Assembly: GCF_008326305.1 (NCBI RefSeq)
Contig: NZ_BIXY01000044.1
Span: 1-56,321 of the forward strand
Length of the DNA: 56,321 nt
Origin: Dictyobacter arantiisoli
Lineage (GTDB): Bacteria > Chloroflexota > Ktedonobacteria > Ktedonobacterales > Ktedonobacteraceae
Direction: 5' to 3'
The notes beneath the pieces are model-generated. The model was not told where the DNA came from, made no database searches, and worked only from the letters and a program-made list of their open reading frames with translations. Each line of letters starts with the position of its first letter. The stretch's first letter is position 1. The position numbers were made by a program, and so were the translations under genes. Positions 28,364 through 56,228 of the stretch are shown in pieces.

Positions 28364-29098
28364 TTAATTCCAGCGATCCAATAGTGGCAAAAGTTCGGCC
28401 AGGGTAGAGATGATAGCGGTAGGATGAATATGTGCAGGTTCAGGCCAGGGATAATCAGTCTTTTTCCATACACCTCGCATGCCTACCCCCAGTGCACCAG
28501 ATACATCATCAACCAGACGATCACCTACCATCACACACTCTTCGGGTGCAACCTGCAACCGCTTACAAATCTTAAAAAAAGCCTCAGGATGCGGCTTAGA
28601 GTGGAAAAGATCGGAGGTATAAACAACCACATCCAGCAATGTGTTCAGGCCATGCAGGACCAGGTCAGCGTTATGCCAATCGGCCGCCCACCAGGTATTA
28701 GAAAGCAAGCCCAGACGATATCCTCGTTTTCGTAACTCAATCAATGTCGATGCAGCGTCAGGAAACACCATCGACCAACCATCGACAGCCTGTGCATAGC
28801 CATCCAGCGCCAACTCTAGATCGTCTATACCTACATCACATTTTAGAGTTCGGAATCCTTCAAGCAAAACTTCCGCTGGCGTGTTACTCGTCTGCACAGT
28901 ATTCACGCGTTTCCAATGCTCTAACTCAGCATTACGCATGGATTCTACGTAACGGCTACGCTCAGGCCACCCATGGGTGGCGCTTTTAGCAACAAGATAA
29001 TCGTAGGAAAGCGCCCAACGCCGACAGATATCATCATCCCAGTCCGGCCAATCAATCAATGTGCCCCCCAGATCAAAAATGACAGCTTTAATAGCCAT
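28364..29098 (-). CDS. HAD-superfamily hydrolase (subfamily IA, phosphatase-like)
   Basis: A phosphatase fold of 244 residues. Motif I reads VIFDLGGTLIDW, where the second aspartate of DxD is replaced by G, as in a known subset of HAD proteins. Motif II is GLLSNTWW, motif III is HSKPHPEAF with its lysine, and motif IV is VMVGDRLVDDVSGA. Between motifs I and II is a helical cap, typical of subfamily I. With the general-acid aspartate missing, phosphatase activity may be slow or absent. Substrate unknown. Monocistronic. Confidence 0.82.
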   Translation of the reverse strand: MAIKAVIFDLGGTLIDWPDWDDDICRRWALSYDYLVAKSATHGWPERSRYVESMRNAELEHWKRVNTVQTSNTPAEVLLEGFRTLKCDVGIDDLELALDGYAQAVDGWSMVFPDAASTLIELRKRGYRLGLLSNTWWAADWHNADLVLHGLNTLLDVVVYTSDLFHSKPHPEAFFKICKRLQVAPEECVMVGDRLVDDVSGALGVGMRGVWKKTDYPWPEPAHIHPTAIISTLAELLPLLDRWN

Positions 29099-29748: not shown

Positions 29749-30690
29749 CTAGTCCACTAAACCTTTACGTCGCATCTGCTCCAGGTCGTACTCGATAGGA
29801 GCCAGTGGACTGATACCAGCTGAAATACACGCCCAGCCAACAATCGAGAAGCCAGTTGTCAGTCCATGAATCAACTGAGCTGTATTATGGGTAGTAACCG
29901 CCTGCACACATTGTTCTCGTAATTCTACAGCTTTCTCCGTTGTATACTGTCCGGCAAATCCTTGTAGCAAGGCAGTATGAGGATTAAATTGCTCATATGT
30001 CAGATCATTAATCGCAGCCAACAGGAATAACCAATAACCTACCTGACTTCCCTCCAGTGCCGTATCTTCCGGCAAATTCGTATGTATGTGCTCACCTGTT
30101 TGCACACCGATCAATTCGCTTAGTTCATCAGCGAGCCGTCCCTCAAGGAAGGTTTGATTCTTCTCATGTAACAGGCGAGATGTGTTCGAAATGGCAGTTC
30201 GATCTTGATCCCTCAAAGAAGCATAGACCGCATACAACTGGCGTAACGACTGCTCCAGTTGCAGTGGTGTCTGAACCGCAGCATCATCCTCATTTGAACT
30301 CAATGGGACTTCCTCTTTCTCCGTTTGATAGATATCCTCTGGATCAAACACACGCTCAGCAACAATCTCTAAACGATCATCTGGCAGTAGTTGACGGTAA
30401 TAACAACTTTGATAACCCTCATGGCATGCCGCATCCCCATGCTGAAAGATACGAATCAAAAGACTGTTTTCTTCGCAATTTACAAAGATAGCACGCACAT
30501 CCTGCACATTGCCGGATTGCTCGCCCTTATGCCAGATTTTATTGCGGGAACGGCTAAAAAAATGCGTCTGACCAGTCTCACGTGTCAATTGCAGCGATTC
30601 TTGATTCATAAAAGCTACCATTAACACCTCATTGGTAGCATCATCTACAATCACAGCAGGGACTAATCCCTGGCTATCAAAATTTAACAT
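29749..30690 (-). CDS. hisI: Phosphoribosyl-AMP cyclohydrolase with extra C-terminal domain
   Basis: Opens the purine ring of phosphoribosyl-AMP in histidine synthesis. Residues 1-110 are His[19 protein letters not shown], then the zinc cysteines C72, C89 and C96. The Mg site, usually DCDxD, reads N71-C72-E73-E74-N75, so the acidic ligands are mostly lost. A further about 190 residues follow a charged linker. They are helical ([36 protein letters not shown]) and occupy the place of HisE (phosphoribosyl-ATP pyrophosphatase) in HisIE fusions, but without clear HisE motifs; a divergent MazG-like fold is possible. It overlaps hisF by seven bases and ends the his operon. Function of the tail is inference. 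Confidence 0.82.
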
Positions 30691-31451
30691 GGCCGTACTA
30701 TTACCCCTTTTGACTGTAAGTATTGCTTGACATCGCGTACACGAAATTCTCCGAAGTGGAATATCGAAGCTGCCAGAACAGCATCAGCGCCCCCTTCAGT
30801 GAGCCCTTCATACATATGCTCCAGAGTACCAACGCCACCAGAAGCAATTACCGGCACCGTCACTGCCGCCGAAACTTTGGCATTCAAAGTGATATCATAT
30901 CCTCGTTTCGTCCCATCACGATCCATGCTGGTCAGTAATATTTCGCCCGCACCCAGGGCAACGCCGCGTTGCGCCCATTCCAGCACATCGAGTTGCGTCG
31001 GCGTGCGGCCACCATGCACATACACTTCATAACCGCTTGGCATGGCGGAATTAGCCCGTGCATCAATCGCCAGCACAATACACTGCGCCCCAAACTGCTC
31101 TGATCCAGCCGTAATCAGCTCAGGATGCTGTACGGCTGCTGTATTCAACGACGTCTTATCCGCCCCGGCCCCCAGCGTCGCACGAATGTCTTCTACCGAG
31201 CGAATACCACCGCCTACAGTGACAGGAATAAACACTTGTTCAGCAGTTCGCCGCACCACATCAAGCATAGTAGCCCGTTTCTCATACGAGGCGGTGATAT
31301 CCAGAAATGTTACTTCATCCGCGCCTTCCAGATTATACAATTTCGCTAACTCGACCGGATCACCAGCATCGCGTAAATTGACAAAGCTTACGCCTTTTAC
31401 CACACGGCCATCCATCACATCCAGGCAGGGAATAATACGCTTCGTTAGCAT
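30684..31451 (-). CDS. hisF: Imidazole glycerol phosphate synthase, cyclase subunit
   Basis: Converts PRFAR plus ammonia to imidazole glycerol phosphate and AICAR. A (beta/alpha)8 barrel of 255 residues; the catalytic aspartates lie in [15 protein letters not shown] (residue 11) and VLAIDARAN (about 130). Phosphate-binding loops [11 protein letters not shown] and VTVGGGIRS are present. It follows hisA after five bases and works with HisH, which is encoded upstream. Confidence 0.96.
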
Positions 31452-31456
31452 AGCCT

Positions 31457-32173
31457 TTACCTTTCAATTTCACGAATAGCACTGGCGAGATCGACCGCTC
31501 CAGTATAGATCGCCTTGCCCACAATCGTTCCCTCTACTCCACTCTGGGCCAGGGCATGCAGATCTTTCAGCGAGCTCACTCCACCGGAGGCGATTAATGC
31601 ACTCGACACCGCCTGTTGCATCTCAGCAAGCGCTGGCAGATTAGGCCCAATCAAAGCACCATCACGTGCAATATCAGTATAGATAAAACGCTGCACTCCG
31701 ATGGCTGACAATTCTCGAGCCAGATCAACGGCCTTCACCTGCGATGTTTCCAACCAGCCAGCAATAGCCACCAGACCATCACGTGCATCCAGACCGACAA
31801 CAATTCTTTCCTGCCATCTATCCAATGCCTGCTGCAATAATTCCCGATTTGTGATCGCCACAGTGCCGAGAATAACCCGCTCCACGCCCACCTCAAGGAT
31901 TTGCTCAATATGCTCCAACGTGCGCATACCGCCGCCAACCTCAATCCGTAGCGTCGTGGCTGCGCGAATACGTTTGATCAATTCAATATTCACCGGATAT
32001 CCTGCTTTAGCACCATCCAGATCGACCAGATGCAGCCAACTGGCTCCGGCCGCTTGCCAGCGTAGTGCCACCTCCACAGGATCAGTATCATAGGTGGTTA
32101 CCTGAGCGTAATCGCCTTGAAAGAGACGCACACAACGCCCATCCTTAATATCAATGGCAGGTAATATAATCAT
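31457..32173 (-). CDS. hisA: ProFAR isomerase
   Basis: Amadori isomerisation of ProFAR to PRFAR. A (beta/alpha)8 barrel of 238 residues with [17 protein letters not shown] at the N-terminus (catalytic Asp 8) and the second catalytic aspartate in [12 protein letters not shown]. Phosphate loops [10 protein letters not shown] and [11 protein letters not shown] are seen. I place the start at 32173, where ATG overlaps the hisH stop as ATGA; a start 12 bases upstream is also open but non-homologous. Confidence 0.95.
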
Positions 32174-32778
32174 TGCTGCACCCATTTCACAAAATTTTTG
32201 AGCACCTGCATTCCCACATCCCCACTCTTTTCAGGATGAAATTGTGTACCCCAGACTTGCTCAGTAACAATCACACTACAATAGGGAGAACCATAATCAG
32301 TGACAGCCGCGACGCCCGTTTGATCTTGCGGCTCTACATAATAAGAGTGCGCAAAATAAAAATAGGCATCACTCGGCACATCTGCGAAAATAGGCAGTCC
32401 CGCCTGCAAAGGGCGAATCTGATTCCAGCCCATGTGGGGAATTTTGGGACCATGCGGAATACGGCGTACTGCACCACGGAACAAATGCAAACCATCTACC
32501 CCACCCTCTTCATGATGATCTGCCAACAACTGCATGCCCAGACAGATACCCAGAAATGGCTTCCCCTGAGATGTGGCTTCACGAATAGCACTATCAAGTC
32601 CACGTGCTGTCATACGAGCCATCGCTGCTCCACCTGAGCCAACACCGGGCAGGACCACGGCCTGGGAATTGGCTACGACCAGTGGATCGTCTGTCACCTG
32701 TACCTGCGCTCCAACATGTTCCAGAGCTTTCTCAATACTCCGAATATTGCCTGCTCCATAATCGATAATGGAAATCAT
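32170..32778 (-). CDS. hisH: Imidazole glycerol phosphate synthase, glutaminase subunit
   Basis: Class I glutamine amidotransferase of 202 residues that feeds ammonia to HisF. The nucleophile is in GICLGMQLLADH (C80 region), and the histidine and glutamate of the triad in TQFHPEKSG. The oxyanion loop PGVGSGG is normal. The ribosome site ATAGGAGGATAG lies inside the last codons of the upstream HAD-APH gene, four bases away, so translation is coupled. Its stop overlaps hisA as ATGA. Confidence 0.96.
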   Translation of the reverse strand: MISIIDYGAGNIRSIEKALEHVGAQVQVTDDPLVVANSQAVVLPGVGSGGAAMARMTARGLDSAIREATSQGKPFLGICLGMQLLADHHEEGGVDGLHLFRGAVRRIPHGPKIPHMGWNQIRPLQAGLPIFADVPSDAYFYFAHSYYVEPQDQTGVAAVTDYGSPYCSVIVTEQVWGTQFHPEKSGDVGMQVLKNFVKWVQQ

Positions 32779-32782
32779 ACAC

Positions 32783-35140
32783 CTATCCTCCTATGATTGA
32801 GAAATTGCCCATCTGCATGACCTGCGAAAGTCCCAACCAACATATCGCTGCTGACCGCTTCGTAGTATCTAACAAATTCACTGTCAACAGTGGACAACAC
32901 ATCAAGGCCAGACGAACTATTTCTTCCCAGTTGTCCGGCAATGCCTGATGCTCACGTAAGAGCTCAAGCAAGGGCATAATCAGATGCGTCCGTTTCGTAG
33001 CAAGGATAGCTTGCCGTACTGGTGTCACCTGATAATTATGCTCAATCACAATACGTGAATCCTCAATGTGCACCGAAATCTGGAGGTCTTGTTCAACCTC
33101 TTGTGGAAAATACATCCAGGTGGCAAAAACGTTATGAAAGAACGGTTTGACGACATCTAATAGTGGAGAATGGCGTCCGGCAAAGGCGGGATCAAAATAT
33201 TGATAGGTAGTGCTATGCTCTAAAAACACATTCCCAAAGTGGGCATCCCCATGGCCAACCACGGTCAAAGCGGCCTGCGCGGGCTGCAAAACCTCTCTGG
33301 CGCGCTCGATTAACTGGCCCAATGTTTGCCCATACTCCGAGGCATTACCTCCCACATCTTCGCCATTGATGGTCCATTGATACTGTAACAGATCCGCGAA
33401 GGATAGAGCCTGCCCACCTTGCTCATATGTGTTCTGGCCAGGCAAGGGAAACCATTTGTCCTCGTAAAAGCTCTGCAAACGTCCACCAGTCAAACGATGC
33501 CAGAACAATTGATGAATCGGGGCCTGCTCATGCTCTTCAACTGTACTCTTTTGTAACGTCTCACGATAGATTGCCAGTAACCGTTCACATTCCAATTGTT
33601 CAGCCGATCTTAGCATCTCAACGTTGGCCTGAGAGGTATCACCAGTCTCCACTGCACGCATCAAATCAAACATCACCGGGGCATGAATGACAGGATAAAT
33701 AACCATCTGCTGCCCCTTCTCATGCACGGTACGCAAAGGCAATACAATATTATAACCCGCATGATGCAATAACTCGGCATGATAATACTCTTCCAAAATC
33801 CCCTGTTCCTCGACATGAGTTTTGAAAAAATACTCTTCGCCGCCAACTCGATAGATACCGTTGAAGGAATTAAGCGAGACTGCTTTAGGTGTCAAAGTGA
33901 TCTCATCCACTGGCACTTTGAGATGATGGGTAAACCAGCGTCGCAATAGCATCTCAGCCTTATTAAGCTCTATAAATTGCATCCGCTGGATGGTTATCAG
34001 ATCATCTAAACGTGTCAGAAGCTCCGGTACCCTGGAAACGTCAGGGATCAGGAAATCTGGCTGGCTAAGCTCCAATTGCTGGCGCGCATCTACGGTCAGG
34101 GCACCCGTTAGAACAGCTATGACGATAGCTCCGGCGGCCTGACCACCACGTACATCGCTGGTCGTATCCCCAACGACAATAAAACTTCCACGTGGCGGAG
34201 CAGACTCACCAATCTGATAGTCTGGATCTGCGGCTTTGAGAAATTGATAGGGATGTGGTTTGACCAGCGAAGTATTGTCATCCCGCAAAGCCAGCTGCTC
34301 TTCAGCCAGTGCGACCTCTGTATGGGTCATGACATAGGCTGGATCAAAATACTTCCATAATCCATAATTTCGCAGCGGAACCACCGCCTCTGAACGAGGG
34401 CGACCGGTGGCAATACCTAAGGTATAGCCCTGCTCCTTGAGCGTACGTAAAGTCTCATGCAAGGTCTCTACTGGCAACACTGGCTGTTCCATAGCAATAC
34501 AAGCATATGGCCTCGCCTGTGTGGGAGAATGATGGTAGACCTGAGTATATAATTCATCACCTAGATAGATCTCTTGGAAGAGCTCCTGACAACTGGACCA
34601 GAAGAGGCTATAGCGTGCAAACACGCCCTCAACCGGCTGCCCAAAGATCTCATTGGCATGAATAGTCAGGTTTTCAAATAATTCCAATCCTACATAATTC
34701 TGAAAAGCAGGCTCGTTCAGACGCTGGTAGGCTCGAGCGGAAATGTCACTTCCCAAACCTGCGTGGGCTAATGCTGTACGAAAAGCTGCCAACCAATCTG
34801 CATCCCATGGTTGTATCGGGAAGAGGGCAGTACGCTCCGGCACGCTCTCCACTTGCTCTAATAAATAGAGTAAACAGAGGCACACAGCAGCAAAACAGGT
34901 ATCCCAGTTGGAGTTAAGAGAGCGTGCCTTAAAACTAAGCATAACCGATTCTGGCAAGACGTCATGGCTCCAACGTATACATTCCTCAGCATCAGCCGGT
35001 GAGACGTAAGACGTCGCGCCATTCACATTCCAATAGCGAGGACTATACAATAACTCATGCAGTACCAAACCCGCCGCAATCCAGTATGTCATCTCGCTCG
35101 TTATCACGCCATCCAGATCAAAAACAACAACGTTGCTCAA
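32783..35140 (-). CDS. Two-domain HAD hydrolase - APH-like kinase fusion, first gene of the his operon
   Basis: 785 residues without signal peptide. Residues 1-385 form a HAD phosphatase with a very large cap: motif I VVVFDLDGVITSE (D8, D10), cap about 12-235, motif II GIATGRPRS (T245), motif III VKPHPYQF (K294), motif IV VVGDTTSDVRGG (D325, D329). Residues 395-785 form an APH/choline-kinase-like lobe pair: lysine in EEYFFKTH (K440), VVGHGDAHFGNVFL (HGDxHxxN, D632, N637), and FDPAFAG (D650). Every catalytic residue of both folds seems present. It starts with TTG at 35140 (AAAGGGATATT upstream) and ends four bases before hisH, with the hisH ribosome site inside its last codons. The role is unknown; a phosphatase-kinase that adds and removes a phosphate, or a histidinol phosphatase, are guesses. 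Confidence 0.75.
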   Translation of the reverse strand: MSNVVVFDLDGVITSEMTYWIAAGLVLHELLYSPRYWNVNGATSYVSPADAEECIRWSHDVLPESVMLSFKARSLNSNWDTCFAAVCLCLLYLLEQVESVPERTALFPIQPWDADWLAAFRTALAHAGLGSDISARAYQRLNEPAFQNYVGLELFENLTIHANEIFGQPVEGVFARYSLFWSSCQELFQEIYLGDELYTQVYHHSPTQARPYACIAMEQPVLPVETLHETLRTLKEQGYTLGIATGRPRSEAVVPLRNYGLWKYFDPAYVMTHTEVALAEEQLALRDDNTSLVKPHPYQFLKAADPDYQIGESAPPRGSFIVVGDTTSDVRGGQAAGAIVIAVLTGALTVDARQQLELSQPDFLIPDVSRVPELLTRLDDLITIQRMQFIELNKAEMLLRRWFTHHLKVPVDEITLTPKAVSLNSFNGIYRVGGEEYFFKTHVEEQGILEEYYHAELLHHAGYNIVLPLRTVHEKGQQMVIYPVIHAPVMFDLMRAVETGDTSQANVEMLRSAEQLECERLLAIYRETLQKSTVEEHEQAPIHQLFWHRLTGGRLQSFYEDKWFPLPGQNTYEQGGQALSFADLLQYQWTINGEDVGGNASEYGQTLGQLIERAREVLQPAQAALTVVGHGDAHFGNVFLEHSTTYQYFDPAFAGRHSPLLDVVKPFFHNVFATWMYFPQEVEQDLQISVHIEDSRIVIEHNYQVTPVRQAILATKRTHLIMPLLELLREHQALPDNWEEIVRLALMCCPLLTVNLLDTTKRSAAICWLGLSQVMQMGNFSIIGG

Positions 35141-42356: not shown

Positions 42357-43379
42357 CTAATTATTGGTATAGAATTGAGAAAGATCCGTAATGGGTGCGA
42401 TCACTTTCTGGGATGCCAGAAACTTTTCGGTGGAAGTCCAGGCGGTTGGATCATTATAGCCAGGATTACCTTTCCCCTGGTATATTGGAATCGTGGCTTT
42501 AAGCACTTGCAGGGCCACATCGGGATTTACCCCGGGTATTAAGGGCTTGCTGATATTAACTGCTCCCTGGGGATCAGCAACCACATCCTTGACACCTTTC
42601 AGGGTTGCTCGCACAAAAGCATTCACTACCTGCTTTTGATTGGTGTAGGTATCTTTTGTCGTGATAATGCCATTTGAGACCAGTGGCATATAGTCCGAAA
42701 CATCAAACGTACGCACATGGAAACCATTGCGCTCAAGCTGCAATGGCTCATTGTTAGAATAACCAACCACGGCATCCACTTTATGCGACATCAAGGCAGA
42801 GATCTGGTTGAAACCAATAGACTGCACTTTGACATCATTGGTTGTAAGATGACCCGCTTGCAATAAAGCTAATAATCCTGTATAGGTAGCACCAAAGGGT
42901 CCAGGCACGCCAATAGTATGACCTTTAAGATCAGACAACTGTTGAATCCTGGCATCTTTGGGCACAATTAAACTAACAGGATACTTCTGAAAAATAGTCG
43001 AGGTATCGATAGCTTGCAGGCTTTTATTTTTATCATAAGCGGCCAACAGCTCATCACCGCTGGCAAACACAAAGGTATTTTTTCCGGCGATCATCGTACC
43101 AATCAGATCAGTGACGATGCCATGATGGAAGGTCACATTCAGGCCAGCATCTTTATAATAGCCCTTTGATTGCGCAACATAAAAAGGGGCAAATTGGATA
43201 TCAGGATTATATCCCAACCCGATTGAAACATCCGTCAGGGACTTATCCGCTGTAGTTGATGAGTTTCCTGAAGAGTTACTGGTAGAAACTGGTCCTCCAC
43301 ATGCGGCCAAAAACATGACACACACCAATGCGAGTGATACAAATGACCAGGTCACAGACAAACGACGATAGATTGTCAT
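42357..43379 (-). CDS. ribY: Riboflavin ABC transporter substrate-binding lipoprotein
   Basis: Periplasmic-type binding protein of the NMT1/THI5 fold, 340 residues. The N-terminus is a lipoprotein signal ending in FLAACGG (lipobox LAAC), so it is anchored outside the membrane. Fold markers include SIGLGYNPDIQFAPFYVAQSKGYY and GVPGPFGATYTGLLALL. The family binds thiamine precursors or similar compounds, but the FMN riboswitch two features upstream and its pairing with the adjacent permease point to riboflavin, as known for RibXY in Chloroflexi. It lacks a partner ATPase in the window. A terminator-like hairpin separates it from ribX, so it may be expressed separately. Ligand is inference. Confidence 0.85.
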   Translation of the reverse strand: MTIYRRLSVTWSFVSLALVCVMFLAACGGPVSTSNSSGNSSTTADKSLTDVSIGLGYNPDIQFAPFYVAQSKGYYKDAGLNVTFHHGIVTDLIGTMIAGKNTFVFASGDELLAAYDKNKSLQAIDTSTIFQKYPVSLIVPKDARIQQLSDLKGHTIGVPGPFGATYTGLLALLQAGHLTTNDVKVQSIGFNQISALMSHKVDAVVGYSNNEPLQLERNGFHVRTFDVSDYMPLVSNGIITTKDTYTNQKQVVNAFVRATLKGVKDVVADPQGAVNISKPLIPGVNPDVALQVLKATIPIYQGKGNPGYNDPTAWTSTEKFLASQKVIAPITDLSQFYTNN

Positions 43380-43548: not shown

Positions 43549-44424
43549 TCAATATATCACTTCTGCGAGCTTCACTAATAATGCAGTGGCGCTATAATAG
43601 ACGGCTGCAAGCACCGCCAGAATAATAACAGTTGCAAACATAAAAGCCATATTATATTGATGTAAAGCCATTTGCACCAACGCACCCAATCCCTGATCAG
43701 GGCTACAGAAAAATTCACCGACCAGTGCCCCGGTGATTGATAAGGTTAAACCGGTACGGACCGAAGCGAGAATGGCAGGCAAGGCCAGAGGAAACTCAAT
43801 TGCGGATAATAAGGACCAGCCAGAGGCTCCTTCAAGACGGGCGGCATCCAACAATTCGCGCTCGATCGTTCGAATCCCAAGCACTGTATTTACCACCATG
43901 GGGAATAATACTACCAGCATACACACAACTATCACAGGTAGCACACCCATCCCCAACCAGAGGTAGAGAAATGGAGCGATGACAATGGCTGGTATAGCCT
44001 GCCCGGCGGATAAATAGGGCTGTACGGTATATGCCACCAGGCGGGACTTAGCAATGCCATACCCTAACGGCAAGGCCACAGCTACCCCCAGCAGAAAACC
44101 AAAAAAGCTCTCTTGTAGCGTGATGCCAATATGTTCCCAATACAAACCTGAACTAAAGCCGTCAATCAAGCTAGCAAACACATCTTTTGGAGCAGGTAAG
44201 ATAAATGCATTCACGCTTCCAGTCGCGGTTACGATATACCAGGCCAGCAGTAATAGTGCGCCGAGTAGAAAAGGAGGAAGAGTCAGGACACGATTCATGA
44301 TCTTCCAGGTCGTGCCCCTGGTAGCACGAGTCTCTTTCACGCTGCTTGCCGCAGCATCGTTTCCTTGATATTTTTGACGCACATCCAGTCGTGCACCATC
44401 AGTCCTTGAAGTTGTAGCACTCAT
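43549..44424 (-). CDS. ribX: Riboflavin ABC transporter permease
   Basis: Permease of the ThiX/SsuC type, 291 residues with about six membrane helices; the ATPase-contact loop is in LLDAARLEGASGWSLLSAIEFPLALPAI (EAA-like motif). About 45 polar residues precede the first helix. The preceding FMN riboswitch strongly implies a riboflavin role: RibX is the known partner of RibY in Chloroflexi, where the pair is described without a dedicated ATPase. It is the first gene of the unit. The ATG at 44424 has GAGGG about ten bases upstream. Confidence 0.88.
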   Translation of the reverse strand: MSATTSRTDGARLDVRQKYQGNDAAASSVKETRATRGTTWKIMNRVLTLPPFLLGALLLLAWYIVTATGSVNAFILPAPKDVFASLIDGFSSGLYWEHIGITLQESFFGFLLGVAVALPLGYGIAKSRLVAYTVQPYLSAGQAIPAIVIAPFLYLWLGMGVLPVIVVCMLVVLFPMVVNTVLGIRTIERELLDAARLEGASGWSLLSAIEFPLALPAILASVRTGLTLSITGALVGEFFCSPDQGLGALVQMALHQYNMAFMFATVIILAVLAAVYYSATALLVKLAEVIY

Positions 44425-44593: not shown

Positions 44594-44793
44594 AGCGATG
44601 ATCAAATGCATCATCGCACATGGTTTCTGCATAACCTTCTCCCATCCGGACTGTACCGTCGGCTTCGGAATTGCACCGAATCAATCATATACATAGTCAA
44701 GAAGCGACTGCATATAGACTCGCGGGCTTGATAGGGCTCTTTTTAAGCTTGCTACCTTACCGCCGGTCGGGAATTTCACCCTGCCCCGAAGGT
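44594..44793 (-). promoter_or_regulatory. FMN riboswitch (RFN element) upstream of ribX
   Basis: The aptamer at 44793-44634 shows the conserved core in order on the minus strand: GAAGGT of P1, GGGTGAAATTCCCGACC then GGCGGT, AGCCCGCGAG, GGTGCAATTCC, GCCGACGGTACAGTCCGG and ATGGGAGAAGGT closing P1. It is followed by a hairpin (GCGATGAT with ATCATCGC, 44617-44594) and TCTCTTT, which is a likely terminator that FMN would favour. High FMN should thus reduce expression of riboflavin uptake. The ribX start lies about 170 bases further on, with no gene between. Confidence 0.95.
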
Positions 44794-44898
44794 CTCTTTG
44801 CTAGTAAGTATGCCATATAGTTGCACTATAATGCAAGTGTTTAAGCCAACTCCATCAACACATCAAACATTCTGGACTTATACAAACATGCCTGGTGC

Positions 44899-45890: not shown

Positions 45891-45920
45891 TTGGCAGTCC
45901 CTCTTGCAAGAAGATATAAT
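45891..45920 (+). promoter_or_regulatory. Promoter of the F420 cluster
   Basis: TTGGCA (45891-45896), an 18-base spacer and a perfect TATAAT (45915-45920). The -10 box ends 18 bases before the cofE ATG, giving a short leader that contains GAGGAGG. Confidence 0.7.
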
Positions 45921-45938
45921 AATCACACGAGGAGGGCT

Positions 45939-46697
45939 ATGAGCACAGAATTACGCATTATTCCGATCACAGGCATCGGCGAAATCAACCCCGGCACTGA
46001 TCTGGGCGTTCTTATTTATCAAGCACTACAGCAGCAACAGCTTACACTACAAGCGGGCGATGTATTGGTAGTGACACAAAAAATTGTTTCTAAAGCTGAA
46101 GAACGTCTCGTTAACCTGGAAACTATTGAACCATCAGCATTTGCTCGAGCGTTTGCTGAACGCAATGATAAAGATCCACGACACGTTGAAGTTGTTTTGC
46201 GCGAAAGTAAACGTATTGCGCGCATGGAGCGCGGCGTTATGATTAGCGAGACCTATCATGGTTTTATCTGTGCCAATGCTGGCGTCGATGAATCCAATGT
46301 TGAAGGCGGAGAATTTCTGACATTGCTGCCGGTTGACTCCGATCAGTCTGCGCGTGCCATTCGGAGTCGTTTGCAAGCATTGAGTAATGAAGAAGACATC
46401 GCTATATTGATCTCGGATACCTGGGGTCGGGCCTGGCGCAATGGACAGGTCAATATGGCAATTGGAGTGGCAGGCATGGAGGCACTGACCGATTATCGCG
46501 GACAACATGATGCCTATGGCTATGAGTTACGCGCCAGCATTATTGCAGTCGCCGATGAACTATCTTCGGCGGCTGAACTTGTCATGGGTAAGGTTGACCG
46601 TATCCCGGTGGCTCTTATTCGTGGATATCGCTATACACCTGGAGAAGGCACGGTTCACACCCTGACCCGGGATAGCGCTACCGATATGTTCCGTTAG
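45939..46697 (+). CDS. cofE: F420-0:gamma-glutamyl ligase
   Basis: Adds gamma-linked glutamates to coenzyme F420-0 with GTP. 252 residues from the ATG at 45939 (GAGGAGG six bases upstream). Seen are TGIGEINPGTDLG, VVTQKIVSKAEERLV (metal and GTP region), ICANAGVDESNVEGG and SDTWGRAWRNGQVNMAIGVAGM. It is the single-domain CofE form; the nitroreductase that is fused to it in the FbiB protein of actinobacteria is here the next gene. First gene of cofE-nitroreductase-cofD-cofC. Confidence 0.94.
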   Translation: MSTELRIIPITGIGEINPGTDLGVLIYQALQQQQLTLQAGDVLVVTQKIVSKAEERLVNLETIEPSAFARAFAERNDKDPRHVEVVLRESKRIARMERGVMISETYHGFICANAGVDESNVEGGEFLTLLPVDSDQSARAIRSRLQALSNEEDIAILISDTWGRAWRNGQVNMAIGVAGMEALTDYRGQHDAYGYELRASIIAVADELSSAAELVMGKVDRIPVALIRGYRYTPGEGTVHTLTRDSATDMFR

Positions 46698-46723
46698 TCT
46701 TGAATAGGTTTTGTAGTATTTTC

Positions 46724-47410
46724 ATGAAAGAACTCAATCACACTGGAGATCAAGCTGCCGGAGAGCCAGCAGAATCAGCGCACGCCTTATCCACACTACG
46801 GCGTGTCGATGATCTGGCTGCGTTGATGCGAAGCCGTCGCAGCGTTCGTCAATACCAGGACATTCCTGTGCCACACGATCTCTTGCACCAGATGATAGAA
46901 GCGGCACGCTGGGCCCCATCTCCACACGGCCGTCAACCCTGGCGTTTTGCGGTCTTAACTCGAACAACACCCAAACAGCAACTTGCGGATGCGATGGGAC
47001 AAACCTGGCAGCAAAATCTGGAGATGGATGGACAAGCGCCAGATATCGTGGCACTACGCATGGAAAAATCGCGCCAACGTATTTTGCAGGCACCAGCTAT
47101 CATTCTCCCTTGCCTTTATCTAGAAGATCTTGATCAGTATCCTGATGCGCAACGGCAGGCGGATGAAAAAACCATGGCGGTACAAAGTATTGGGGCTGCC
47201 ATCCAAAACATGCTGCTCACGGCTTATGAGTTGGGATTGGATACAGGATGGATGTGCGCCCCACTCTTTTGTCCAGAAGTGGCCTGTGCGGCTCTTGATC
47301 TCGATAGTCGACTTATTCCCCAGGCATTGATTACGGTAGGTTACGCAGCGGCCGATCCAAAACGTCGCCCGCGCCTCCCTTTGGATAGTTTGATAGTTCG
47401 TTTTGATTGA
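46724..47410 (+). CDS. FbiB-like nitroreductase, probable dehydro-F420-0 reductase
   Basis: Flavin-dependent nitroreductase fold, 228 residues: RSRRSVRQYQDIPV (FMN phosphate), AARWAPSPHGRQPWRF, LLTAYELGLDTGWMCAP and PQALITVGYAA. In actinobacteria this domain is the C-terminal half of FbiB and reduces dehydro-F420-0 to F420-0; in Thermomicrobium a separate gene does so. Its place between cofE and cofD supports the same role. The start is uncertain: the ATG at 46724 is 26 bases after the cofE stop, with a poor ribosome site, and a TTG at 46700 is also possible. FMN-dependent activity is inferred from the family. Confidence 0.83.
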   Translation: MKELNHTGDQAAGEPAESAHALSTLRRVDDLAALMRSRRSVRQYQDIPVPHDLLHQMIEAARWAPSPHGRQPWRFAVLTRTTPKQQLADAMGQTWQQNLEMDGQAPDIVALRMEKSRQRILQAPAIILPCLYLEDLDQYPDAQRQADEKTMAVQSIGAAIQNMLLTAYELGLDTGWMCAPLFCPEVACAALDLDSRLIPQALITVGYAAADPKRRPRLPLDSLIVRFD

Positions 47411-47418
47411 GGTAATCT

Positions 47419-48351
47419 ATGATCGTCGTTCTCGCAGGTGGTGTTGGCGCTGCACGTTTCTTACAAGGTCTGATACAGGTCGTTCCCCAGGAGGAGATTA
47501 CCATTATTACCAACACAGGGGATGATCGGGTCTTCTATGGCCTGAATGTGTCTCCTGATACAGATATAGTGATCTACACCCTTGCTGGTGTCGTTGATGA
47601 GAAGTTTGGCTGGGGTATTCGCGATGATACCTACCACACGATGCAACAATTGACCAGCTATGGCAATGAAGATTGGTTTATGTTGGGTGATCGCGACCTG
47701 GCAACCCATATCCATCGTACGGCTCGCTTACGTGAGGGTAAAACCTTGAGTGAGGTTGCTGACGAACTGCGCCAGCACTTTGGACTCAAATTGCGCATAC
47801 TCCCGATGAGCAATCAAACAATTGAAACCCACATTCAGACACCCGCAGGACTTTTCCATTTTGAGGAATACATGATCCAGCGCAAGTGTTCTGATGAGGT
47901 ACAAGATGTTCTATTCGTAGGAGCGCAGGAAGCTAAACCAGCGCCAGGTGTCATCGAAGCCTTGAAAAGTGCAGACGCCATCTTACTGGCTCCCAGCAAT
48001 CCTATTGTGAGCATCGGCAGCATCTTAGCCGTGCCGGGGATTCATGATGCGTTGCATGAAACAAGTGGCATGATCGTTGCCGTCAGCCCCATCGTTGGTG
48101 GTGCTCCCATTAAAGGGCCCGCAGATAAACTGATGCGCGGTCTCCATATGGATGTATCTGCTGTTGGCGTGGCAAGGCACTATCGAGATTTTCTGGATGT
48201 CATGGTAATTGATAAGCAAGATGCCCAACTCGCTGAAGCCATTGAGGACCTGGGCATTCCTACATCCATCACCAATACTATTATGAGTGACAGCGAAGCC
48301 AAAGCCAATCTGGCACGTCATGTATTAAATGCGGCGGGACTGTCGTATTAA
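47419..48351 (+). CDS. cofD: 2-phospho-L-lactate transferase
   Basis: Transfers the phospholactyl (or phosphoenolpyruvyl) moiety from the guanylylated donor to Fo, giving F420-0 or its dehydro form. 310 residues: VLAGGVGAARFLQGL at the start, TNTGDD with the Fo site, GLNVSPDTDIVIYTLAG, MLGDRDLATHIHRT, LAPSNPIVSIGSIL and SPIVGGAPIKGPADKLM. GAGG precedes the ATG. It begins eight bases after the nitroreductase stop, so translation is probably coupled. Confidence 0.95.
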   Translation: MIVVLAGGVGAARFLQGLIQVVPQEEITIITNTGDDRVFYGLNVSPDTDIVIYTLAGVVDEKFGWGIRDDTYHTMQQLTSYGNEDWFMLGDRDLATHIHRTARLREGKTLSEVADELRQHFGLKLRILPMSNQTIETHIQTPAGLFHFEEYMIQRKCSDEVQDVLFVGAQEAKPAPGVIEALKSADAILLAPSNPIVSIGSILAVPGIHDALHETSGMIVAVSPIVGGAPIKGPADKLMRGLHMDVSAVGVARHYRDFLDVMVIDKQDAQLAEAIEDLGIPTSITNTIMSDSEAKANLARHVLNAAGLSY

Positions 48352-48412
48352 AAATTGCTCATCTGCCAATCACGCGGATAGGGAGCGAGCAATAGACTAG
48401 AGGACGTCTGGT

Positions 48413-49063
48413 TTGTCTATACAACAACAAAAAATAGTGAAATTTGCCGCCCTTGTGCCGGTCAAATCTCTTGATCAAGCGAAAAGTCGTCTCGCTGCTC
48501 ACTTACAACCGGAGCAGCGAGCAACTCTTATGCTAGATATGCTCCGGCATGTCTTGTTGACCTTGCGCGATAGTCATGCCTTTGACCATATTTCGGTTGT
48601 CAGTTCCGACCAGGATGTCCTGCGGTATGCCCAACAGTGGGGCGCCCAGGCCCTTTTAGAGGAGCAGGCGGGACATAATCCCGCCCTTACGGCCGCAGCC
48701 ACCTATGAATATCAGCATGGAACAACAGCTCTGTTAACCATATCTGCCGATCTCCCACTCCTGCAGGTGGAAGATGTTTGCAATCTTGTAGAAATAGCAC
48801 ATCAGCACGATGTGATTATCGCGCCTTCTCAGGATGGGACTGGCACCAATGCATTGTTGACCCGACCACCACTGGTCCTTCCTTATCGCTTTGGTATCAA
48901 TAGCCGTTATCATCATCAATACGAAGCTGAACAAAGACAGCTTCGCTACTACTGTTATAGCAGTATTGGGCTGGCACTGGATATCGATACTATTGAGGAT
49001 ATTAACGCTTTTCAGACCTATGACGAGCAGGATCTGGCATGCTGCACATCTAGTTATCTGTAA
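48413..49063 (+). CDS. cofC: 2-phospho-L-lactate (or phosphoenolpyruvate) guanylyltransferase
   Basis: Makes the guanylylated donor used by CofD. 216 residues with a nucleotidyltransferase opening, ALVPVKSLDQAKSRLA, then ISADLPLLQVEDVCNLV and the RFGINSRYHHQYEA region with its substrate residues. It starts with TTG at 48413, after AGAGGA eight bases upstream. This is the last gene of the F420 cluster; FO synthase (cofG/cofH or fbiC) is not in the window. Whether the substrate is phospholactate or phosphoenolpyruvate cannot be read. Confidence 0.9.
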   Translation: MSIQQQKIVKFAALVPVKSLDQAKSRLAAHLQPEQRATLMLDMLRHVLLTLRDSHAFDHISVVSSDQDVLRYAQQWGAQALLEEQAGHNPALTAAATYEYQHGTTALLTISADLPLLQVEDVCNLVEIAHQHDVIIAPSQDGTGTNALLTRPPLVLPYRFGINSRYHHQYEAEQRQLRYYCYSSIGLALDIDTIEDINAFQTYDEQDLACCTSSYL

Positions 49064-53290: not shown

Positions 53291-53932
53291 AAGCTTCTCA
53301 CAATCTTACTATCTATCCTGATTCAAAAAGTTACCTGTAGTAGAAACATCTTCAGGTTACAATCATACCTTATGCAAATGACAGAATAAAGCAGTTATAC
53401 GCAGGAAAAAATATACATATATGGTATATTTTAGTATTCCATCTTTACTCATATTGATGGCTTCGCTAAGGCTCTTAATTTCTTGATAAAGGCCACATCT
53501 AAACTAGAGAAATCTATCAACAATGATTCAGAAACACAACAGAATACTATACGGGATAATCTATCTGCAATAATCCTTAAGTACATTTAAATAGCTGCAT
53601 GGATAAAAAAGGGCGCATTTTCAGCTCGATAAAATAAACGAATGGACAAAAAGAGGGTATACGGCAAAGGACAATTTCCTTTTTGCGTACTTGAGAAAAA
53701 AATCATTCGAGTTTACAATAAAAAAGCCAATGTAGAAACGTGACATCGTCTGTACAAAAGCAGCATGTAAGTCATAAAGTGTTGAAAAACTGCAAATTGA
53801 GCAGTGTTTGGCACAGCTAGAAAGGAAAAAATATACGTCTGCTAAGCCCGAAGCTTATTGATTGTTCGTTATTGTAGGTTTAAACTCTTCAATAACCACA
53901 TAAAGATGAAGATCGCTTCAAGGAGTTGCAGA
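53291..53932. other. AT-rich gap before egtB with an inverted repeat
   Basis: No gene is supported. AAAATATAC (53408-53416) and GTATATTTT (53424-53432) form a perfect nine-base inverted repeat with a seven-base spacer, a possible operator or low-melting promoter element. No convincing promoter pair for egtB was found. Confidence 0.4.
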
Positions 53933-55231
53933 GTGGCTAAAAATATTCAGGACTACGCAACACAGACTCAACCTTCCCCTCGTCAATCTCTGATTGATTG
54001 CTATACGCGAGTACGTCATTTTACTGAACAACTGTGTGTGCCATTGGAGACTGAGGATTACGTTATTCAATCAATGCCAGACGTGAGTCCAACGCGCTGG
54101 CATCTCGCCCATACTGCCTGGTTTTTTGAGACCTTTTTATTGTCTCCCAATGTAGCTGATTATGCTTCACCACATCCTCAGTATGCCTACCTGTTCAATT
54201 CTTACTACAACTCGGTTGGTGAGCGCCATAATCGTTCTCAACGCGGTTTGATTTCACGTCCTACGGTGAGCGAGACCTATACGTATCGTCACTATGTAGA
54301 TCAATGCGTCACTGACTTCCTGGCTTCTTGTGATGAACAACTTCTCGAAAAGATTACACCGGTATTGACACTGGGTATTCATCACGAACAACAACATCAG
54401 GAATTGATGGTGACCGATATCAAACATGTTCTCTCTTGTAATCCTCTGTATCCAGCTTACCATGAGCAAATACCTCAAAAAACCGCCCAGGTCCCGCCGC
54501 TTGAATGGATTAGCTATCCAGAACAGCTTGCCTGGATCGGCTATCAGGGGCAGGATTTTTCCTACGATAATGAGGGCCCGGTACATCGCCAGTTTGTCGA
54601 TGCGTATCAGTTAGCATCACGCCTGATTACAAATAGAGAATACCTTGACTTCATGCAGGATGGCGGTTATCAAAATCCCCTTCTCTGGTTATCCAGTGGC
54701 TGGAATACTGTCCAGGCAGAACACTGGCAGGCTCCTCTCTATTGGATAAAACAGGATCATGATTGGTATGTAATGACCCTCAGCGGATTGCGTCTGGTTG
54801 ATCCTGACGAGCCAGTCTGCCATGTCAGTTATTATGAGGCTGATGCCTATGCTCGCTGGGCAAAGGCACGCCTGGCAACCGAAGCAGAATGGGAAATCGC
54901 AGCATCTCATCTTCCTATCACTGGGAACTTTGCTGAACAACGCACGTTCCATCCAGAGCCACTGTCAACCCTGCTCACCTCTGACCAGCCAGCACAAATG
55001 TTTGGGGATGTCTGGGAATGGACGCAGAGTGCCTATCTCCCCTACCATGGCTATCAACCAGCGCCAGGAGCACTTGGCGAATACAACGGGAAATTTATGT
55101 GTAACCAATTTGTGCTGCGTGGTGGCTCATGCGCGACCTCTATCACCCATATCCGGCCCACCTATCGCAATTTCTTTCCACCAGATGCGCGCTGGCAATT
55201 TATGGGTATTCGCTTAGCTCGGGAGGTGTAA
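53933..55231 (+). CDS. egtB: Ergothioneine biosynthesis sulfoxide synthase
   Basis: Iron enzyme that couples trimethylhistidine (hercynine) to a thiol in ergothioneine synthesis. 432 residues from the GTG at 53933, which has AAGGAG seven bases upstream (25 earlier open codons are not conserved). The N-terminal DinB-like domain supplies iron ligands in HLAHTAWFFETF and HHEQQHQELMVTD. The C-terminal FGE-sulfatase domain includes YEADAYARWAKARLATEAEWEIA, GDVWEWTQSAY and LRGGSCATS. No egtA, egtC or egtE is near, so the thiol may be free cysteine, as in EgtB types that use cysteine; this is inference. egtD follows. Confidence 0.92.
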   Translation: MAKNIQDYATQTQPSPRQSLIDCYTRVRHFTEQLCVPLETEDYVIQSMPDVSPTRWHLAHTAWFFETFLLSPNVADYASPHPQYAYLFNSYYNSVGERHNRSQRGLISRPTVSETYTYRHYVDQCVTDFLASCDEQLLEKITPVLTLGIHHEQQHQELMVTDIKHVLSCNPLYPAYHEQIPQKTAQVPPLEWISYPEQLAWIGYQGQDFSYDNEGPVHRQFVDAYQLASRLITNREYLDFMQDGGYQNPLLWLSSGWNTVQAEHWQAPLYWIKQDHDWYVMTLSGLRLVDPDEPVCHVSYYEADAYARWAKARLATEAEWEIAASHLPITGNFAEQRTFHPEPLSTLLTSDQPAQMFGDVWEWTQSAYLPYHGYQPAPGALGEYNGKFMCNQFVLRGGSCATSITHIRPTYRNFFPPDARWQFMGIRLAREV

Positions 55232-55298
55232 AATTTTACAGCACATAGAAGAACAGCTTGAACGATATGATTTCGCGCCCAGGCAAGATACATTTCGC

Positions 55299-56228
55299 AT
55301 GGAGATTCTGCAAGGATTGCGCAAACCATATAAAGAACTTCCCAGTAAATACTTCTATGATGAGGTCGGCTCTCAATTGTTCGACCGCATCACTGAAGTC
55401 GATGATTATTACCTGACGCGTACAGAATCGCTTATCCTGCAACAGCAAATCGAAGCTATCGCCGCTGCACTCGGTCCACAATGTATGCTTATTGAGTATG
55501 GCAGTGGAAGCAGTATTAAAACACGCCAGTTACTTGACCATCTGGTAGATCCTATAGCATACGTACCCATTGACATCTCGAGGGAACATCTATTACAGGC
55601 ATCGCTCACGCTCGCTCATGCCTACCCTACATTAGAGATTCTCCCCATTTGTGCAGACTATACCAGTGCTTTTGCCTTACCTCAGCCATCGAGGCCAGGT
55701 AAACGCAAGGTGGCTTATTATCCAGGATCAACAATCGGCAATTTTGATAGCGAGCCCGCTAAACGCTTCCTGTCTCAAATCGCGCAAACCTGTGGAAAAG
55801 GGGGCGGTTTACTGATAGGAGTAGATCTAAAAAAAGATTTTGCAATTCTGCATAAAGCCTACAATGACTGCGATGGCGTGACAGCACAGTTCAATTTACA
55901 TTTGCTCGAACGGCTTAATGAGGAGTTGGCGAGCAATTTTCAACTTGACCAGTTTGGACATTATGCATTTTATAATCCTGGTCAGGGGCGTATCGAAATG
56001 CACCTCGTTAGCTTACAAAAGCAAGAGGTGCAGTTTGGTGACGAAACAATCACCTTCGATAACTTCGAAAGCATTTGGACCGAAAGTTCCTACAAATACA
56101 CGCTTGACGAATTCCGGCAACTGGCAAATAGTACCGGTTTCCAGGTCGAACACGTCTGGCTTGACCCTCAGCAACTTTTTAGTATTCAGTACCTCTCAGA
56201 ACTTATCCGAAAACGTGGAAGGAGATGA
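55299..56228 (+). CDS. egtD: L-histidine N-alpha-methyltransferase
   Basis: SAM-dependent enzyme that trimethylates histidine to hercynine. LPSKYFYDEVGSQLFDRITEVDDYYLTRTE opens the conserved core, IEYGSGSSIKTRQLL binds SAM, and YYPGSTIGNFD is typical of the family. 309 residues from the ATG given here. The frame continues upstream with no stop for 22 codons. Translated from an ATT at 55233, these read as the missing N-terminal helix of EgtD (EEQLERYDFAPRQ), and GGGAGG lies six bases before that ATT. The true start may therefore be this rare ATT, at the egtB stop; the ATG has no clear ribosome site. Confidence 0.9.
   Translation: MEILQGLRKPYKELPSKYFYDEVGSQLFDRITEVDDYYLTRTESLILQQQIEAIAAALGPQCMLIEYGSGSSIKTRQLLDHLVDPIAYVPIDISREHLLQASLTLAHAYPTLEILPICADYTSAFALPQPSRPGKRKVAYYPGSTIGNFDSEPAKRFLSQIAQTCGKGGGLLIGVDLKKDFAILHKAYNDCDGVTAQFNLHLLERLNEELASNFQLDQFGHYAFYNPGQGRIEMHLVSLQKQEVQFGDETITFDNFESIWTESSYKYTLDEFRQLANSTGFQVEHVWLDPQQLFSIQYLSELIRKRGRR

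What the first reader, a model, noticed from the sequence alone, without database searches (positions are those of the whole stretch)
32783..35140. HAD phosphatase fused to an APH-like kinase, translationally coupled to hisH
A 785-residue protein joins a large-cap HAD domain (D8/D10, T245, K294, D325) to an APH/choline-kinase-like domain (K440, D632, N637, D650), each with its catalytic residues. It is the first gene of a five-gene his operon: the hisH ribosome site lies inside its last codons. No fusion of this kind is known to me as a histidine enzyme. It could be a missing histidinol phosphatase with a regulatory kinase-like domain, or a phosphate-handling pair (kinase plus phosphatase on one small molecule). 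Both readings are inference.
Basis: partly seen in the sequence, partly recalled or inferred. Interest (0 to 1): 0.65.

Follow-up and report, generated by a model that had tools for sequence, protein, structure and literature searches.

The report
Kinase-phosphatase fusion replacing histidine enzyme HisB
In a family of soil bacteria a protein made of a phosphatase joined to a sugar-kinase-like enzyme sits where the textbook histidine enzyme HisB normally sits, and it occurs only in genomes that lack HisB and carry an altered HisD, which suggests that these bacteria finish making histidine by a route not yet described.

Summary
In detail: a 785-aa HAD-APH fusion (minus strand, 32783-35140), first gene of HAD/APH-hisH-hisA-hisF-hisI. 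It occurs in 27 of 29 genomes of the family and stays directly before hisH in 25 of 27 informative genomes, often after hisG, the slot that hisB fills in relatives. All catalytic residues of both halves are invariant. The larger finding lies behind it. None of the 29 genomes encodes imidazoleglycerol-phosphate dehydratase (IGPD). Their only HisD is a variant (Q259E, D360N, H367A in E. coli numbering), and those tested have no clear histidinol phosphatase. The two genomes without the fusion also lack hisA/hisF. In another Chloroflexota order the kinase half exists alone, usually adjoining the same variant hisD. There 65 genomes carry it, 66 carry IGPD, none carries both; HisD type follows the same split. 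In two families a separate HAD gene follows the kinase gene. I conclude that HAD-APH replaces HisB in a non-canonical late half of histidine biosynthesis (about 0.65). The chemistry is inferred: phosphatase removes phosphate, kinase makes a hydroxyl leave as phosphate; preferred order via imidazolylglycerate and imidazolepyruvate (about 0.4). No biochemistry was done. Plasmid homologues in Proteobacteria look catabolic.

The parts
32783..35140 (-). HAD-APH fusion gene, 785 aa (TTG start at 35140, TAG stop at 32783)
34010..35140 (-). HAD phosphatase half (residues 1-377), large helical cap, 1qyi-like; D8, D10, T245, K294, D325, D329 invariant
32786..34009 (-). APH/choline-kinase-like half (residues 378-785); K440, E451, D632, N637, D650 and SLNS(F)NG loop conserved; found alone in other Chloroflexota
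32170..32778 (-). hisH; its Shine-Dalgarno (GGAGG) lies in the last codons of the fusion gene
31457..32185 (-). hisA
30684..31451 (-). hisF
29749..30690 (-). hisI (PRA-CH) with a long conserved C-terminal part, perhaps a divergent HisE

Best explanation
HAD-APH takes the place of HisB in a non-canonical late half of histidine biosynthesis. SHOWN: these genomes keep the genes that make imidazoleglycerol phosphate (IGP: hisG/Z, hisI, hisA, hisH, hisF), have no IGPD, carry only a variant HisD, and have HAD-APH (or APH alone) in the his gene cluster. INFERRED: the APH half uses ATP to phosphorylate a hydroxyl of the imidazole-glycerol side chain, so that it leaves as phosphate, with the imidazole ring helping the elimination; this achieves the dehydration that IGPD does with a metal. 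The HAD half removes the terminal phosphate. Preferred order (about 0.4): IGP -HAD-> imidazole glycerol -variant HisD (four-electron oxidation of the terminal alcohol of a diol)-> imidazolylglycerate -APH-> imidazolepyruvate -aminotransferase-> histidine. In families without the HAD a HisN- or HisJ-type phosphatase would do its step. The confidence given is for the replacement of HisB, not for the order.
For: IGPD absent from all 29 family genomes, present in the relatives with hisD/hisA/hisF but no HAD-APH, where it precedes hisH. The two family genomes without HAD-APH lack hisA/hisF. Kinase-only homologues: 65 of 154 genomes of another order, IGPD in 66, both in 0; among 136 hisD+ genomes P about 3e-30 ignoring phylogeny; 26 genera against 24, and split inside one family. 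The kinase gene follows hisD in 29 of 30 loci, mostly convergent with hisG-hisZ. Variant HisD (E/N/A) in 28/28 and 29/29 loci of APH-type genomes, canonical Q/D/H in 30/30 IGPD-type loci. HisD-APH-HAD as three adjacent genes in two other families. All kinase and HAD catalytic residues kept.
Against: No biochemistry or growth data. HisA/HisF were tested in only 10 genomes of the family, and not in the APH-only order. In one family (f96) the kinase gene is mostly not beside hisD. Proteobacterial homologues lie in what look like catabolic operons, so the kinase may act on something else. The HAD gene is missing beside APH in the f74 loci examined. NCBIfam's hisD model accepts the variant HisD. 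G019 and G020 keep variant HisD although no hisA/hisF was found in their assemblies.
Confidence: 0.65

Rival explanations
1. Bifunctional HisB analogue with canonical intermediates (a sub-case of the replacement idea). APH converts IGP directly to imidazole-acetol phosphate by kinase-assisted elimination, HisC transaminates, HAD is the histidinol phosphatase, and the variant HisD still oxidises histidinol.
For: E. coli HisB is also a HAD phosphatase (N) plus dehydratase (C) just before hisH (PMC5516325). No HisJ or HisN over cut-off in the family genomes tested.
Against: Does not explain why HisD changes Q259, D360 and H367 exactly where IGPD is lost, nor why hisD and the kinase gene overlap or adjoin in two phyla.
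Confidence: 0.25
2. HAD-APH is an accessory or regulatory protein; IGP is dehydrated by an unrecognised enzyme encoded elsewhere.
For: Enzymes of unknown sequence cannot be excluded by profile search; the searches here test only for IGPD.
Against: The exclusion pattern with IGPD is carried by this very gene; catalytic residues are invariant; the kinase-only form is the one unassigned gene that is constant in the hisD/hisG cluster.
Confidence: 0.12
3. The variant HisD-APH pair makes or degrades another imidazole (or polyol) compound, and these bacteria get histidine otherwise or need it.
For: Plasmid homologues sit with an ABC transporter, alpha-hydroxy-acid oxidase and dehydrogenases.
Against: The genes to IGP are conserved and linked; the only two family genomes without HAD-APH are those without hisA/hisF; in G020 hisI overlaps variant hisD.
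Confidence: 0.13
4. One reading: HAD is a histidinol phosphatase and the kinase-like half is regulatory or has lost activity.
For: No canonical histidinol phosphatase seen in the family genomes tested.
Against: The kinase half is at least as well conserved as the HAD half, exists alone, and keeps K, D, N, D; IGPD would still be missing.
Confidence: 0.05

Closest known systems
Bifunctional HisB of E. coli (HAD histidinol phosphatase + IGPD)
   Same: Two-domain protein, HAD at the N terminus, gene directly before hisH (PMC5516325)
   Different: The C-terminal half has the APH kinase fold, not IGPD; the HAD half matches a large-cap 1qyi-type HAD, not a histidinol phosphatase model
S. aureus protein Q8NW41 (PDB 1qyi), uncharacterised HAD
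   Same: Same fold and length as the HAD half (phmmer E 1e-31 over residues 5-379; Foldseek top hit)
   Different: Stand-alone, function unknown; no kinase partner known to me
APH / choline kinase superfamily (APH(9)-Ia, APH(3'), homoserine kinase 2ppq, MTR kinase)
   Same: Fold and catalytic residues
   Different: No sequence relative in the PDB by profile, about 10-14% identity by structure, own SLNS(F)NG loop, linked to his genes
HisD and DHPS-3-dehydrogenase HpsN (for the partner protein)
   Same: Partner is of the HisD fold and keeps catalytic E326/H327 and zinc ligands H262/H419
   Different: E259/N360/A367 and PRGKG(A/S)F instead of HisD Q/D/H and G(S/T)APL; HpsN keeps Gln248, Asp352 and His359 and has GRY(A/S)H (PMC11382572): a third class

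Membership tests
Bifunctional HisB (HAD HolPase + IGPD) | IGPD domain PF00475 | tested here: not met
   no hit in the fusion nor in the genome
Bifunctional HisB (HAD HolPase + IGPD) | HAD domain at the N terminus | tested here: met
Bifunctional HisB (HAD HolPase + IGPD) | gene directly before hisH in a his operon | tested here: met
   25 of 27 informative genomes
HAD superfamily phosphatases | motifs I-IV (DxD, T/S, K, D) | tested here: met
   D8, D10, T245, K294, D325 invariant
HAD superfamily phosphatases | phosphatase activity | not testable with these tools
   needs purified protein
APH / choline kinase superfamily | fold and K, HGDxHxxN, D residues | tested here: met
   fold; residues
APH / choline kinase superfamily | Pfam APH model at gathering cut-off | tested here: not met
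   17.7 bits against 23.2; no Pfam hit for the stand-alone form
Aminoglycoside resistance enzymes | aminoglycoside substrate | not testable with these tools
   his-operon context argues against it
Histidinol dehydrogenase HisD (partner protein) | canonical Q259/D360/H367 and GSAPL-type motif | tested here: not met
   E/N/A and PRGKG(A/S)F in nearly all of 28 + 29 loci
DHPS dehydrogenase HpsN (partner protein) | GRY(A/S)H motif with His126 | tested here: not met
   motif PRGKG(A/S)F against PMC11382572

The most novel reading that the evidence does not exclude
A second, non-homologous route from IGP to histidine that skips imidazole-acetol phosphate and histidinol: dephosphorylation first, oxidation of imidazole glycerol by a new HisD class, ATP-driven dehydration of imidazolylglycerate by an APH-fold kinase, then transamination of imidazolepyruvate.
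Probability: 0.4. Interest if true: 0.93.

Novelty: new variant of a known kind. Interest (0 to 1): 0.8.

Why it matters
Histidine biosynthesis is regarded as one invariant pathway, and no alternative to IGPD is known to me; nothing in the held literature that I searched describes one. IGPD is a herbicide target (PMC10978614 abstract). If right, dozens of Chloroflexota genera that automated tools would call histidine auxotrophs are prototrophs by a new route, an APH-fold enzyme has a dehydratase role, and many genes annotated 'hisD' are another enzyme. It makes a clear prediction that can be tested with a few proteins.

Tried and rejected
A simple 'missing histidinol phosphatase' was my starting view; it fails because IGPD is missing as well and HisD is altered. 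That IGPD is lost by assembly gaps: rejected, 0 of 29 genomes while controls ring in 13 of 14. HpsN membership of the variant HisD: rejected on motif. Phage spread of the kinase: no match in phages. A PDB sequence relative of the kinase half: none. Papers on IGPD gaps in these bacteria: none found; GapMind and the 2018 gap-filling paper report histidinol phosphatase gaps but no IGPD gap in the passages I read. The 1qyi-type HAD outside Chloroflexota was seen once, on a Monoglobus plasmid, and not followed.

Full report
OBSERVATION. The ORF at 32783-35140 is on the minus strand, 785 aa, TTG start. Pfam finds a HAD domain clearly and an APH domain weakly. AlphaFold (mean pLDDT 84.5 for the fusion, 89.4 for the kinase half) with Foldseek gives 1qyi, an uncharacterised S. 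aureus HAD, for the first half and APH(9)-Ia/APH(3')-type kinases for the second. In 21 homologues D8, D10, T245, K294, D325, D329, K440, D632, N637 and D650 never vary. The stop lies 4 nt before hisH, and the hisH ribosome site GGAGG is in the last codons.

FAMILY AND SYNTENY. In the window's class (47 genomes) the fusion occurs in 27 of 29 genomes of the window's family (Ktedonobacteraceae such as Dictyobacter, Ktedonobacter, Tengunoibacter) and in none of the other families. It is followed directly by hisH in 25 of 27 genomes where this can be seen. In other genera hisZ and hisG lie directly before it; hisG and the fusion overlap by 4 nt in L036, L047 and L055. In G028 the fusion has left hisH but stays with hisG. 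E. coli and the two relatives that have IGPD (G001, G002) carry hisB, or a hisD-hisB open frame, in that slot before hisH.

MISSING ENZYMES. IGPD (PF00475) is absent from the window's genome (97% complete) and from all 29 family genomes, while the search rings in 13 of 14 control genomes and in G001 and G002. hisD is found in 28 of the 29. hisA and hisF are present in 8 of 10 family genomes tested; the two without them, G019 and G020, are exactly the two without HAD-APH. Both are draft genomes, so this is co-absence rather than proven loss. The HisN model gives 52 bits in the window's genome, nothing in G038 and G042, and at most about 167 bits in the family, against a cut-off of 275. The HisJ model gives at most 67 bits against 90 in 12 family genomes. 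The family therefore has no clear known phosphatase of the pathway either, although some HisN-like proteins may still do the job.

THE KINASE HALF ALONE. Among 400 Chloroflexota genomes one further clear homologue appeared, G258, with the kinase half only, 414 aa. Its gene overlaps hisD by 4 nt and converges on hisG-hisZ. In that order 65 of 154 genomes have it and 66 have IGPD; no genome has both. Among the 136 hisD-positive genomes the split is 63, 65 and 8 with neither. The chance of no overlap is about 3e-30, which ignores shared ancestry; by genus it is 26 against 24, and family f74 contains both kinds. In 29 of 30 loci examined hisD adjoins the kinase gene. In f96 it mostly does not. In f92 (G418) and f96 (G541) the order is hisD, kinase, HAD as separate genes; that HAD is 32% identical to the window's HAD half in G418. 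Fusion in one family and adjacency in two others tie the two activities together.

VARIANT HisD. The HisD of APH-type genomes differs from canonical HisD at three active-site positions: Q259 to E, D360 to N, H367 to A, and has PRGKG(A/S)F (with rare deviations) where HisD has G(S/T)APL. The three substitutions hold in all family loci and APH-only loci that cover the positions (28 and 29 loci), while 30 of 30 IGPD-type loci, G001, G002 and E. coli have the canonical residues. Q259 and D360 are zinc ligands in HisD; the matching Gln248 and Asp352 are kept in the diol dehydrogenase HpsN, whose His359 aligns with H367 (PMC11382572; the numbering match is mine). The variant is thus neither standard HisD nor HpsN. 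In the tree it forms one branch (100/100) with the HisD-like proteins of the plasmid operons described next. It keeps E326/H327 and E414, so a four-electron oxidation is expected. In G020 hisI overlaps this hisD, which again ties it to histidine.

OUTSIDE CHLOROFLEXOTA. Kinase homologues at 33-36% identity lie on 106 plasmids, mainly of rhizobia and Klebsiella. Each annotated operon I read has the variant HisD, an alcohol dehydrogenase and a short-chain dehydrogenase beside an ABC transporter; most also have an alpha-hydroxy-acid oxidase, and a HutC-like or other UTRA regulator and a HisC-type aminotransferase occur in several. In Klebsiella hisD and the kinase gene overlap. These look catabolic, and the hosts are known to have their own hisB (own knowledge). 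So HisD variant and kinase form an old working pair. Such a pair most simply acts on consecutive intermediates (inference).

MECHANISM. Shown: gene content, linkage, exclusion, residue patterns. Inferred: activity. IGPD removes water from the imidazole-glycerol side chain. An APH-fold kinase could do so by phosphorylating the hydroxyl next to the ring and letting phosphate leave; phosphorylation followed by elimination is known from lanthipeptide synthetases and from the hydroxylysine kinase/phospholyase pair (own knowledge). If the HisD variant and the kinase act in sequence, and the HisD variant takes a diol instead of an amino alcohol, the order becomes: phosphatase, imidazole glycerol, HisD variant, imidazolylglycerate, kinase, imidazolepyruvate, aminotransferase, histidine. 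Many aromatic aminotransferases could do the last step (own knowledge). I give this order 0.4, the canonical order with HAD-APH as a HisB analogue 0.25, and the common claim (it replaces HisB) 0.65.

LIMITS. No assay. The exclusion statistic is not phylogenetically corrected. That Ktedonobacteria are histidine prototrophs is assumed from their genes, not known to me.

Noticed in passing
window 44630-44797 (-): FMN riboswitch (Rfam RF00050, 115 bits), upstream of an ABC permease-like gene (43549-44424) and a substrate-binding-like gene (42357-43379) on the same strand: perhaps a riboflavin importer.
   Followed up: no
window 28364-29098 (-): A second HAD gene (244 aa) follows hisI here and in several relatives (L031, L032, L043, L044, L051, L059): another candidate phosphatase for the pathway.
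   Followed up: partly
window 29749-30690 (-): HisI with a conserved C-terminal part of about 190 aa that matches no Pfam HisE model; may be a divergent HisE or a new regulatory part.
   Followed up: partly
L122 7947-9911 (G001): HisD and IGPD in a single 654-aa open frame: a hisD-hisB fusion in a related family.
   Followed up: no
L043 about 9246 (Dictyobacter kobayashii): The fusion reading frame is broken by a frameshift at the domain junction; assembly error or a natural split.
   Followed up: partly
window 45891-49063 (+) and 53858-56228 (+): Genes that look like F420 biosynthesis (CofE, CofD, CofC) and ergothioneine biosynthesis (EgtB, EgtD), judged from sequence only.
   Followed up: no
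L308, L309, L311, L312, L313, L314: Widespread plasmid operon in rhizobia and Klebsiella with variant HisD, APH-like kinase, dehydrogenases, often an alpha-hydroxy-acid oxidase, and an ABC transporter; substrate unknown.
   Followed up: partly
L112:7944-9257, L155:8012-9400, L308:5822-7147: NCBIfam's hisD equivalog model (TIGR00069) accepts the variant HisD far above its cut-off, so it is annotated as histidinol dehydrogenase.
   Followed up: yes
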